This document shows, piece by piece, positions 36,918 through 63,507 of a stretch of DNA of 64,000 bases. Position 1 is the first letter of the stretch, and each line of letters begins with the position of its first letter. The stretch spans positions 806,001-870,000 of the forward strand of contig NZ_CP094526.1 in NCBI RefSeq assembly GCF_029910095.1, read 5' to 3'. A program made the translations under genes and the position numbers. Source of the DNA: Bradyrhizobium sp. ISRA464 (GTDB lineage Bacteria; Pseudomonadota; Alphaproteobacteria; Rhizobiales; Xanthobacteraceae). The notes beneath the pieces were generated by a model that was not told the DNA's origin, did no database searches, and saw only the letters and a program-made list of their open reading frames with translations.

Positions 36918-37613
36918 CTATTGTCCGTGCAGGCGTGCGGTGGCGCGGCGCGCGAACCACTCCGCGGCGACGAGTGCGCCCATCGCGATCACGATCGAGA
37001 TGATCACGAGCCGCCCGGCGGCGCGGTCGCCCTCCGGCGTCTGGATCAGCGAATAGACCGCCGACGAAATGGTCTGGGTTTCGCCGGGGATGTTGGAGAC
37101 AAAGGTAATCGTCGCGCCGAACTCGCCGATCGCCTTGGCGAAGCCGAGGACCATGCCGGCGAGCACGCCCGGCAGAGCGAGCGGCAGCGTCACCGTCGCG
37201 AACACCCGCCAGGGAGCGGCGCCGAGCGTCTCGGCCGCCTGTTCGAGCCGCCGGTCGATTGCCTCGATCGAGAGGCGGATCGGCCGCACCAGAAGCGGAA
37301 ACGACATCACGCCGCAGGCGAGCGCCGCGCCGGTCCAGCGGAAGGCGAAGACGATGCCGAGATGGTTGGCCAGCCAGGCGCCGACCAGGCCGCGCCGACC
37401 GAAGGTCAGCAGCAGCAGATAGCCGGTGACGACCGGCGGCAGCACCAGCGGCAGGTGCACGGCGGCATCGAGGATGGATTTGCCCCAGAAATCGCGCCGT
37501 GCCAGCAGCCAGGCGAGCGCGATTCCGAACGGAGTCGCCACCAGCGTTGCGATGACGGCGACCCTGAGCGAGAGCAGGATCGCCGTCCACTCGGTTGGCG
37601 AAATCTCAAACAC
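36918..37613 (-). CDS. modB: Molybdate ABC transporter permease
   Basis: Permease of 231 residues with about five helices. The start is read as GTG 37613, giving VFEISPTEWTAILLSLRVAV, close to the usual ModB N-terminus. Core features are DAAVHLPLVLPPVVTGYLLL, EQAAETLGAAPWRVFATVTLPLALPG (EAA loop) and GFAKAIGEFGATITFVSNIPGETQT. No Shine-Dalgarno sits directly upstream: the start codon abuts a 23-bp inverted repeat at 37613-37682, and AGAGGAG lies in the loop of that hairpin about 35 nt away. An insertion may have displaced the leader. Confidence 0.92.
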   Translation of the reverse strand: MFEISPTEWTAILLSLRVAVIATLVATPFGIALAWLLARRDFWGKSILDAAVHLPLVLPPVVTGYLLLLTFGRRGLVGAWLANHLGIVFAFRWTGAALACGVMSFPLLVRPIRLSIEAIDRRLEQAAETLGAAPWRVFATVTLPLALPGVLAGMVLGFAKAIGEFGATITFVSNIPGETQTISSAVYSLIQTPEGDRAAGRLVIISIVIAMGALVAAEWFARRATARLHGQ

Positions 37614-37682
37614 TAGTGTCTGTTCCCGAAGTTCGGATGCAAGTGCGGCTCCTCTGTTACGAACTTCGGGAACAGACACTAG
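37613..37682. repeat. 23-bp perfect inverted repeat adjoining the modB start
   Basis: Arms at 37613-37635 and 37660-37682 are perfect reverse complements, separated by 24 nt. The core is TGTTCCCGAAGTTCG. A second palindrome with its own 24-nt loop lies 28 bp away (37711-37764); its loop shares an AGT-CGG-like core. The pair lies between modA and modB, inside the operon. Confidence 0.9.
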
Positions 37683-56833: not shown

Positions 56834-56878
56834 CTGTTGTGATTCTCTGCTGCGCGCAGCGCACCGATGTCTTGCTCC

Positions 56879-56980
56879 GTCATCCTGAGGAGCGCGTAGC
56901 GCGTCGCGAAGGATGAACGGCCCGGCTGGTGGCCGTCGACCCTTCGATACGCGCGCAAGTGCGCGCTCCTCAGGGTGACG
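56879..56980. repeat. Large imperfect palindromic intergenic repeat
   Basis: CGTCATCCTGAGGAGCGCG at the left and GCGCTCCTCAGGGTGACG at the right pair with few mismatches, and inner arms (CGAAGGATGAACGGCC, GGCCGTCGACCCTTCG) extend the hairpin to about 100 nt. It lies between convergent pckA and the arginase gene. This is a dispersed REP/BIME-type repeat in this group, recognised from memory. Confidence 0.75.
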
Positions 56981-57010
56981 GAGCGGAAGTCGTGTGCGTT
57001 TCGCCACTCG

Positions 57011-62018: not shown

Positions 62019-62252
62019 ATGAGGCTATTGATCGAGATCGCGGCCGCAACCTTGCTCGTGGTCTGCATCAGCGCCACGAGCGCCGCTTACGCCGCAGGCA
62101 AGATCGGCCGCAGCGCCGACGGACTGAGCTGCCGCTTCAGCGTGACACCGAACGCCACCCCGGCCGCCCGCTGTGCTGCGATCAAGCGGCAATGCGGCGG
62201 CAAGTTCTACGCGAACGCATGCGGCGACAAACTGCTGTCGGCTGCAAGCTGA
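62019..62252 (+). CDS. Small secreted protein with four cysteines (77 aa)
   Basis: Signal peptide MRLLIEIAAATLLVVCISAT to AAYAAG. The mature 50 residues are basic and contain SCRFSVTPNATPAARCAAIK and QCGGKFYANACGDKLLSAAS, four cysteines that could form two disulfides. AGCGGAGG precedes ATG 62019. A cysteine-stabilised small exported protein of this sort could be a periplasmic inhibitor, toxin or structural peptide, but nothing supports a choice. Confidence 0.65.
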   Translation: MRLLIEIAAATLLVVCISATSAAYAAGKIGRSADGLSCRFSVTPNATPAARCAAIKRQCGGKFYANACGDKLLSAAS

Positions 62253-62548
62253 GCCGCTCGCGCAGGCCGCAAGACGGCTGGTTCATTCGCGCGCGGCGGC
62301 CGGTTCAAACACGCGTTTTTCCAGGTGGCGGCCCGCGCGCCGCGCGCATCGGGAACACCGTGGTGATACGGATTTCCAAGGCTTAACGAGTTCCTTACAA
62401 AATCGACTGCCGCGCGTGGGGCAGGCGCATTTCATACCGAAGCAATTTTTACGGCCGGGCCGCTGACATCGTTCAGCGGCCCTTATTGCTCTTGAAGGGC
62501 GCGCGAGTTGATTGGCTGGGTGCGTGAAGTCCTGTTCCGCTCCAACAT

Positions 62549-62583
62549 CGTCGTCCTGGCGAAAGCCAGGACCCATTACCCCG
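62549..62583 (+). repeat. Left inverted repeat of the GIY-YIG cassette
   Basis: Perfect 35-bp reverse complement of 62912-62946, with an internal 8-bp stem and GAAA loop at 62553-62572, and the tail CCATTACCCCG. Confidence 0.95.
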
Positions 62584-62587
62584 CCCG

Positions 62588-62878
62588 TCAAATGAGGCCC
62601 GACCGGTCGTTCCAGTCGGGATTTTCTGCTTCGATCAATTTGATCTTCCACTCGCGTTTCCAGAACTTCAGTTGCTTCTCACGCGCAATGGCTTCCTGCG
62701 GCGTGGCGAATTCTTCCACATGAACGAGACGGAAGATCTTGTACTTCTGCACGAACCTGGAGCCATGACCTGAACGATGCTGTTCGAGCCGCGTCCGAAG
62801 GTCGTTGGTGACGCCGATGTAGAGCGTTCCGTGATGATGGCTTGCCAAGATGTAGACGTAGTAGCTGCCTGCACTCAT
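62588..62878 (-). CDS. GIY-YIG nuclease family protein (96 aa)
   Basis: Single-domain GIY-YIG nuclease. YYVYILASHHHGTLYIGVTN carries the YVY and YIG motifs 11 residues apart. R28 in NDLRTR, E67 in AIAREKQLKFWK and N86 in EAENPDWND fit the catalytic Arg, Glu and Asn positions, so it should be active as an endonuclease. It has no DNA-binding domain added, like UPF0213/YhbQ-type proteins. ATG 62878 is preferred; GTG 62896 would add MSLSRP. The gene fills the space between the two inverted repeats, suggesting that the repeats are its DNA substrate. Confidence 0.92.
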   Translation of the reverse strand: MSAGSYYVYILASHHHGTLYIGVTNDLRTRLEQHRSGHGSRFVQKYKIFRLVHVEEFATPQEAIAREKQLKFWKREWKIKLIEAENPDWNDRSGLI

Positions 62879-62911
62879 GGGTCGGCTCAAGCTCACAAGA
62901 TGACGACCTGC

Positions 62912-62946
62912 CGGGGTAATGGGTCCTGGCTTTCGCCAGGACGACG
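62912..62946 (-). repeat. Right inverted repeat of the GIY-YIG cassette
   Basis: Perfect 35-bp reverse complement of 62549-62583. It lies 33 bp upstream of the nuclease start codon, so the promoter of the gene must overlap this hairpin or lie outside the cassette. Confidence 0.95.
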
Positions 62947-63075
62947 TCCTTGGATGGTGCTATTAACTCCATCGGAACAAATTAAGAACACTTTAGCAAG
63001 TCTTTGATATATCATTGTGATTCGACGCCTGCGCCGACACAATATCTATGGTCTATCAGCCTCCGCGAGGACTAC

Positions 63076-63507
63076 ATGTCCACCATCGCCTTTGATCAGT
63101 TTGCCCTCACCCGCATTGCGGATTTCGCCCGCTCGTTGTCGCGGCTGCATCAGGCCTCGCGGCGCCAATGGGTCGATGACGACCAGCTCGACCGCGAGTT
63201 CAACGCGGTCTGCATGTCGATCTGGGGCTACACCACGGACGATTTCAGCGACGATCTGTTCTCGCTCGAGGATCACGCCTGGCTCGATTCGCTCGACGAG
63301 GCGCACGCGCGCATCTTCGCCGCCGAGCAGGGCTACGATCTCGTCGACGATCACGGGATGCTGACGGACTGGTGGGGCTATTGCTGGATGATCCTCGCCG
63401 AGAAGCGCGGCATCCTCAATCCGGAGAACCGTGCCGCCGCGCGCGCGGCGATCGAGGACAAATATCGGGCCGCGCCAAACGTGATCGGCGTGATCGTCGG
63501 GCGGTAG
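63076..63507 (+). CDS. Conserved-looking acidic protein, function unknown (143 aa)
   Basis: Cytoplasmic acidic protein with no signal peptide. It begins MSTIAFDQFALTRIADFARS and contains WVDDDQLDREFNAVCMSIWG, DDLFSLEDHAWLDSLDEAHA and WWGYCWMILAEKRGILNPEN. The clusters of Asp, Trp and Tyr suggest a compact folded domain, and no known catalytic motif is seen. ATG 63076 has GAGG upstream; the longer open frame from TTG 63004 lacks a site. I do not recognise the family. Confidence 0.75.
   Translation: MSTIAFDQFALTRIADFARSLSRLHQASRRQWVDDDQLDREFNAVCMSIWGYTTDDFSDDLFSLEDHAWLDSLDEAHARIFAAEQGYDLVDDHGMLTDWWGYCWMILAEKRGILNPENRAAARAAIEDKYRAAPNVIGVIVGR

What the first reader, a model, noticed from the sequence alone, without database searches (positions are those of the whole stretch)
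62549..62946. A minimal GIY-YIG nuclease cassette bounded by perfect 35-bp hairpin-forming inverted repeats
The gene for a 96-residue, apparently catalytically complete GIY-YIG nuclease is enclosed by 35-bp perfect inverted repeats at 62549-62583 and 62912-62946. Each repeat is itself a hairpin (8-bp stem, GAAA loop) with the tail CCATTACCCCG. The gene ends 4 bp from the left repeat. This has the form of a very small mobile element in which the nuclease, not a transposase, would recognise its own ends, comparable in logic to REP sequences with their RAYT enzymes. Seen: repeats, gene, motifs. Inferred: mobility and substrate.
Basis: partly seen in the sequence, partly recalled or inferred. Interest (0 to 1): 0.88.

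Follow-up and report, generated by a model that had tools for sequence, protein, structure and literature searches.

The report
DNA-cutting enzyme paired with genome repeats
A tiny bacterial DNA-cutting enzyme gene sits between two copies of a hairpin repeat that is scattered through the genome, and in related bacteria each version of the enzyme keeps company with its own version of the repeat, which suggests that the enzyme acts on, and may help maintain, that repeat.

Summary
Confirmed: a 96-aa GIY-YIG nuclease gene (62588-62878, minus) lies between perfect 35-bp inverted hairpin repeats. The repeat is a CGTC-class REP with 46 copies in the genome (up to 3 mismatches) against 0 for the control; a 2013 survey said such REPs lack a dedicated transposase. 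The pairing is general: in 105 genus loci outward CGTC hairpins lie on both sides in 73, one side in 27, none in 5; of 206 neighbouring ORFs 4 are both-sided. Repeat sequence predicts nuclease clade in 98 of 99 loci, and in 18 genomes with two clades 36 of 36 loci match their own clade. A gonococcal homologue (49% identical) sits among CGTC repeats. So the nuclease very probably recognises its own flanking repeat; cleavage is untested. The mobility claim needs correcting: all 26 A/B-clade cassettes compared share one locus, so this copy is a resident; only clade C genes were seen at different loci of one genome. I recall, but could not read, a 2025 paper on the Ssn nuclease family that would make this a new member of a known kind. 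A second pairing (DUF559 nuclease with another palindrome) surfaced in passing.

The parts
62549..62583 (+). Left repeat: CGTC-class REP, tag outward (CGTC tag, 8-bp stem, GAAA loop, CCA-type tail)
62588..62878 (-). 96-aa GIY-YIG nuclease gene, clade A of this report
   Evidence: model
62912..62946 (-). Right repeat: exact inverted copy of the left one, upstream of the gene, tag outward
62019..62252 (+). Small ORF (77 aa), left neighbour conserved at the orthologous locus; context, not part of the element
63076..63507 (+). 143-aa ORF, right neighbour; present in 59 of 60 genus genomes; context, not part of the element

Best explanation
A REP-cognate nuclease system. The small GIY-YIG nuclease recognises the CGTC-tagged hairpin that flanks its own gene and is dispersed through the genome, and nicks it hydrolytically when it is single-stranded (replication, repair, DNA uptake). 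The broken end is repaired using another REP site, so that REP dimers (here about 120 bp, two REPs with tags outward) are copied or converted into new or existing sites; rarely a unit with the nuclease gene is copied along. The window copy is an old resident at one conserved locus, not an element that is jumping now. Shown: the repeat family, flanking by repeats, clade-by-clade pairing, higher repeat number where the cognate nuclease is present, different repeat types at corresponding sites, sites without the gene. Inferred: recognition of the hairpin, single-strand cleavage, repair-driven spread. I put recognition of the cognate repeat at about 0.9, and the whole statement, spread included, at the confidence given.
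For: Dispersed repeat, 46 copies against 0 control. Flanking: 73 both, 27 one, 5 none of 105 genus loci; 9/11/3 of 23 in a phylum sample outside the genus; neighbouring ORFs 4/20/182 of 206. Repeat to clade 98 of 99, shuffles at most 35; within-genome 36 of 36 loci in 18 genomes. A-repeats: 16 of 16 A carriers have 9-98 copies, median 47, against median 0 in 83 genomes with neither A nor B. C-repeats: median 114 in 11 carriers of one C subgroup, 14 in 22 other C carriers, 2 in 84 others. One genome with near-identical C proteins at two unrelated loci, shared stretch ending among REPs. Orthologous site with cassette, dimer or other repeat type. Gonococcal homologue among the same class of repeat. 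Two other GIY-YIG genes of the own genome, of other subfamilies, lack such flanks (L005, L306).
Against: No cleavage or movement was measured. The window clade shows no change of locus (26 of 26), so shared descent explains part of its pairing. Exceptions in copy number: G084 has 62 A-repeats, G078 26 and G063 15 with no A or B nuclease found; G004 has 144 C-repeats with no C nuclease listed. B-repeats are common with A and B nucleases alike (medians 48.5 and 63.5) and reach 30 or more in 10 of 83 genomes with neither. Phylogeny was not removed from these comparisons. 9 of 29 named loci outside Bradyrhizobium had no such hairpin, nor did 3 of 12 plasmid-collection loci. No insertion junction or target duplication could be read. 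GIY-YIG enzymes hydrolyse and do not join DNA (recalled), so the spreading step needs host repair, for which there is no direct evidence.
Confidence: 0.55

Rival explanations
1. Domesticated regulator: the nuclease cuts repeat-bearing single-stranded DNA to control uptake or recombination, and the repeats are kept for the host's benefit rather than spread by the nuclease. This is close to what I recall being reported for Neisseria Ssn and its NTS repeat.
For: The window clade sits at one locus in 26 of 26 cases, with intact catalytic residues; homologue among CGTC repeats in Neisseria.
Against: The gene is patchy at that locus: 16 of 50 near-full, 4 fragments, 30 none. Repeat numbers vary from 0 to 98 between species of one genus. 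Clade C genes lie at several loci.
Confidence: 0.27
2. REP parasite: the repeats are spread by another enzyme (a RAYT or other transposase), and the GIY-YIG gene merely inserts into or uses REP sites.
For: Di Nocera and others kept open that CGTC repeats might be mobilised by RAYTs or other transposases (PMC3733652 abstract).
Against: In that survey no tyrosine transposase gene was flanked by CGTC repeats (passage). Each nuclease clade has its own repeat, within genomes too, which a passenger need not have.
Confidence: 0.12
3. Coincidence or shared transcription signal: the gene lies in a REP-rich gap and the hairpins act as terminators or mRNA stabilisers only.
For: REPs generally lie between genes and may be transcribed (PMC3733652, passages); the two arms would pair in the mRNA.
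Against: Both-sided flanking 73 of 105 against 4 of 206 neighbouring ORFs and 10 of 1600 random placements; hairpin density 4.16 against 0.21 per kb; clade matching 98 of 99.
Confidence: 0.04

Closest known systems
Ssn, site-specific single-strand GIY-YIG nuclease of Neisseria, with its NTS repeat (recalled: Chenal, Veyrier and others, Nature Communications 2025; not held, nothing of it was read)
   Same: A homologue 49% identical in a gonococcal chromosome, with the invariant GIY-YIG residues, among CGTCATTCCCGC..GCGGGAAT hairpins of the same class. That this gonococcal gene is Ssn and this repeat NTS is my inference from memory.
   Different: Different stem, loop and tail; here several paralogous clades with different repeats in one genome; single-strand cleavage and a role in transformation not tested here.
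CGTC-tagged REPs (Di Nocera and others 2013, PMC3733652)
   Same: CGTC tag, 8-bp stem, 4-base loop, CCA tail, inverted pairs, Bradyrhizobium (section 6).
   Different: The survey found no dedicated enzyme; here the repeat bounds a GIY-YIG gene. First stem pair is G-C, not A-T.
RAYT (TnpA-REP) with GTAG REPs, REPtrons and REPINs
   Same: Single small gene bounded by REPs, cognate repeat, dispersed repeat dimers.
   Different: RAYTs are HUH tyrosine transposases that cleave the GTAG motif (passages); this enzyme is GIY-YIG.
UPF0213 single-domain GIY-YIG proteins (1zg2, 1ywl)
   Same: Nearest solved structures by sequence (1e-11 and 9.7e-8); 1zg2 the only fold match under 0.001.
   Different: Their flanks were not examined; I know of no repeat association.
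Br-REP1 of B. japonicum (PMC5082802)
   Same: Its consensus CCGGAATCTCGAGATTCCGG is spelled exactly where two clade E hairpins face each other in L162 (passages).
   Different: Described there as a repeat in 3'-UTRs; the passages that I saw name no nuclease.

Membership tests
CGTC-class REP | Terminal unpaired CGTC or TGTC tag, stem of 8-9 bp, loop of 4-5, tail CCA | tested here: met
   definition from section 6 of PMC3733652
CGTC-class REP | A-T pairs in the first and second stem positions ('almost invariably') | tested here: not met
   First pair G-C, second T-A; clades D and E mostly have A-T first. A stated tendency, not a strict rule
CGTC-class REP | High copy number, often as inverted pairs | tested here: met
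   46 copies; by position 22 form 11 inverted pairs of 118-123 bp, 2 bound the gene, 22 without listed partner
Ssn nuclease family (definition recalled) | Single-domain GIY-YIG protein homologous to the Neisseria one | tested here: met
   49% identity; that this gonococcal gene is Ssn is recalled
Ssn nuclease family (definition recalled) | Gene associated with dispersed cognate repeats | tested here: met
Ssn nuclease family (definition recalled) | Sequence-specific cleavage of single-stranded DNA | not testable with these tools
   needs purified protein
RAYT / REPtron | HUH tyrosine transposase | tested here: not met
   GIY-YIG by Pfam and fold
Transposon or insertion sequence | Same gene-bearing unit at unrelated loci | tested here: not met
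   Clades A and B: one locus, 26 of 26. Met for clade C: L121 and L124 in G031
Transposon or insertion sequence | Target-site duplication | tested here: inconclusive
   None visible next to the arms; empty sites too diverged to read a junction

The most novel reading that the evidence does not exclude
CGTC REPs across Pseudomonadota are sustained by hydrolytic GIY-YIG nucleases that cut their own hairpin and spread it by repair-driven conversion between REP sites: a homing-like, transposase-free counterpart of RAYT-REP. The principle may be general, with a second small nuclease family (DUF559) paired with another palindromic repeat.
Probability: 0.4. Interest if true: 0.82.

Novelty: new member of a known kind. 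Interest (0 to 1): 0.6.

Why it matters
In 2013 it was stated that CGTC REPs, one of the two large REP superfamilies, 'apparently lack a dedicated transposase' (PMC3733652, abstract). The pairing shown here names a partner enzyme and gives ready test material: five nuclease clades with different hairpins, sometimes two in one genome, so that recognition can be tested by swapping repeats. If the spread is nuclease-driven, repeats can multiply without any transposase. Homologues in 93 of 299 sampled genomes of the phylum could supply many sequence-specific single-strand cutters. If the Ssn paper that I recall already covers these, what is added is the genus-wide pairing, the copy-number link and the use of corresponding sites by different repeat types.

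Tried and rejected
Rejected: chance (shuffles, control); REP-rich neighbourhood alone (206 neighbouring ORFs, 1600 random placements); a phage or plasmid gene (1 of 50,697 phage records, 32% identity; 35 of 72,556 plasmid records, all under 60% identity); a known anti-phage family (only partial PADLOC matches at about 1e-3). The first hairpin scan (both sides 56, one 21 of 93), limited to short loops, left most of clade E without repeats; a wider loop range found them in most.

Led nowhere: insertion boundaries and any target duplication could not be fixed, because intergenic stretches differ too much between the sampled species. Literature: nine searches with GIY-YIG, REP, RAYT, REPIN, dRS3, CGTC or Ssn listed no paper that by title or abstract links them (listings only). 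My recalled DOI for the Ssn paper is not held. The 2025 RepRanger paper has 0 occurrences of nuclease, GIY or RAYT (PMC12306157, term counts).

Rows dropped: L005 (no match to the query), 2 of 107 genus, 1 of 30 named and 2 of 25 phylum loci, for short flanks, L003, L171, L286, L287 and L292 had no clade label, and 3 of 102 labelled loci had no hairpin, 5 of 30 loci for length. Matches beyond the rows listed were not examined. Clade membership for the copy-number test was typed and includes a few genes with an internal stop (G012, G058, G103).

Full report
What is there. At 62549-62946 the window holds a 96-residue GIY-YIG gene on the minus strand between two exact 35-bp inverted arms, as described. 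Each arm is CGTC + 8-bp stem + GAAA + stem + CCATTACCCCG and folds as such. The protein matches Pfam GIY-YIG. Its AlphaFold2 model (mean pLDDT 89.1) is nearest to UPF0213 1zg2 (E 2.7e-4) and then, more weakly, to Slx1.

The arms are a known class of repeat. Tag, stem, loop and CCA tail are those of CGTC-tagged REPs (PMC3733652: outline and abstract, passages, section 6). One stated tendency, A-T in the first two stem positions, is met only in the second. The own genome (one contig, 8.46 Mb) has 46 copies at up to 3 mismatches and none of the reversed control. By position 22 of them form 11 inverted pairs of 118-123 bp, 2 bound the nuclease gene and 22 have no listed partner. So the nuclease-bearing unit is one member of a repeat population.

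The pairing is general. Of 117 genomes of the genus 116 have a homologue. Of 107 genus loci given, 105 had enough flank: outward CGTC/TGTC hairpins within 250 bp lie on both sides in 73, one side in 27, none in 5. For named loci outside Bradyrhizobium it is 14, 6 and 9 of 29; for a phylum sample outside the genus 9, 11 and 3 of 23. Neighbouring ORFs give 4, 20 and 182 of 206, random placements 10, 129 and 1461 of 1600. Hairpin density in the named loci is 4.16 per kb near the gene and 0.21 far from it. Homologues occur in 93 of 299 genomes of the phylum at 1e-10. Among 12 loci of the plasmid collection, Azospirillum lipoferum (gene between sufB and sufC), Novosphingobium, Aeromonas, Sinorhizobium meliloti pSymB, Shinella, Rhizobium CIAT894 and Sphingobium have outward hairpins on both sides; Photobacterium has one, facing the gene; Planktothrix, Rhizobium tumorigenes and Spirosoma have none.

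Each nuclease clade has its own repeat. The protein tree (92 rows, 98 columns, many weak forks) shows groups called A to E here. Main stems and tails: A GTCCTGGC, CCATT; B GTCCCGGC or GCCCCGGC, CCATA; C GTCCCTGC, CCATA; D ATCGCCCG, GTCGCCCG, ATCGTCCG or ATGCCCCG, CCAGT; E ATTCCGGG with a longer loop, CCATA or CTCGA. Nearest-repeat matching with the own genome left out gives the right clade for 98 of 99 loci; 100 shuffles reach at most 35. In 18 genomes with two clades, 36 of 36 loci carry repeats nearer their own clade's. A and B share one locus and most D loci lie at one (19 loci in one context), so shared descent explains part of this; clades C and E, at several loci, and the within-genome test do not reduce to it. 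Residues 59, 69, 72 and 80 are among those that differ by clade. The clade E repeat accounts for Br-REP1 of B. japonicum (PMC5082802, passages): in L162 two facing E hairpins spell exactly that sequence.

Copy number follows the nuclease, with exceptions. A-repeats: 16 of 16 A carriers have 9 to 98 copies (median 47); 14 B carriers have median 20.5; 83 genomes with neither have median 0, but 5 of them have 5 or more (G084 62, G078 26, G063 15). C-repeats: median 114 in 11 genomes of one C subgroup, 14 in 22 other C carriers, 2 in 84 without, though 13 of these have 30 or more (G004 144). B-repeats have medians 63.5 with B nucleases, 48.5 with A nucleases and 4 with neither. Phylogeny was not removed.

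Mobility. All 26 A and B loci compared lie at one place, between the 77-aa ORF and the 63076-63507 gene. Of 50 stretches anchored on that gene 16 have a near-full nuclease gene (one with an internal stop), 4 a fragment and 30 none; in 10 of the 30 the left neighbour ORF was not found either. So the window cassette is a resident that is often lost or absent, not a recent arrival. Clade C differs: G031 carries near-identical proteins at two unrelated places (DNA 88% over 458 bp), the shared stretch ending among REPs. At the site of one of them, G023 (left flank 91% identical) has a single C dimer and no gene, and G003, G004 and G010 have B dimers; G019 has a mixed pair. At a dimer site of the own genome, anchored on both sides, G000 has an A dimer and G004 a B dimer with the same left junction. 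Anchored on one side only, G003 has A, G010 B and G044 C there, G049 one B repeat; of 30 loci 5 more have other or partial hairpins and 18 none. So corresponding spots hold different repeat types, which fits conversion or re-insertion at REPs. Loss in G023 instead of gain in G031 cannot be excluded, and no junction was sharp enough to show a target duplication.

Relation to known systems. A gonococcal record of chromosome size filed as plasmid holds a homologue 49% identical to the window protein among CGTCATTCCCGC..GCGGGAAT repeats; the 2013 survey equates Neisseria CGTC-1 with dRS3. From memory, this gene is Ssn, reported in 2025 to cut single-stranded DNA at such repeats and to affect transformation. 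The paper is not in the held library and I read none of it. I file the window gene, provisionally, as a new member of that kind. In logic it is like RAYT-REP, but it is not a RAYT: the enzyme is of another family. Steps after recognition are inference.

A second pairing. At the site orthologous to L121 some genomes (L178, L181, L195) have instead a small gene that reads like DUF559 between different palindromes. In 25 genus DUF559 loci examined (of 30 fetched) the longest exact inverted match between the two flanks has median 24 bp; one random placement per locus gives median 0 (no match of 10 bp) and at most 14. The one search made listed no paper on this. It may be an independent nuclease-repeat system and deserves its own study.

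Noticed in passing
L178, L181, L195; L379-L408 (genus DUF559 loci): Small DUF559 endonuclease-like genes flanked by long exact inverted copies of another palindrome (CCCTCTCCC..GGGAGAGGG types); median shared inverted match 24 bp in 25 loci, control median 0. Possibly a second nuclease-repeat pairing.
   Followed up: partly
L009, L015, L016, L018, L019, L020, L022, L023, L025 (own genome): These A-type repeats share a further conserved flank of about 50-70 bp outside the tag on one side, so some dimers are parts of larger mosaic repeats.
   Followed up: no
L162 and other clade E loci: The published Br-REP1 repeat is the junction of two facing clade E hairpins next to a GIY-YIG gene.
   Followed up: partly
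window 62541-62954, minus strand: A transcript through the whole unit would pair its two ends over the repeat (z -8.2), which could affect expression of the nuclease.
   Followed up: no
window 56874-56984 and 37613-37682: Other inverted repeats: 23 nt at 96% (GCTCCGTCATCCTGAGGAGCGCG) and 23 nt perfect (CTAGTGTCTGTTCCCGAAGTTCG).
   Followed up: no
L368 (Azospirillum lipoferum plasmid AZO_p3): A homologue with its repeats lies between sufB and sufC.
   Followed up: no
plasmid collection, NZ_CP119142.1 and NZ_AP026896.1: Records of 2.17 and 4.94 Mb listed as plasmids of Neisseria gonorrhoeae and Aeromonas caviae have the size of chromosomes.
   Followed up: no
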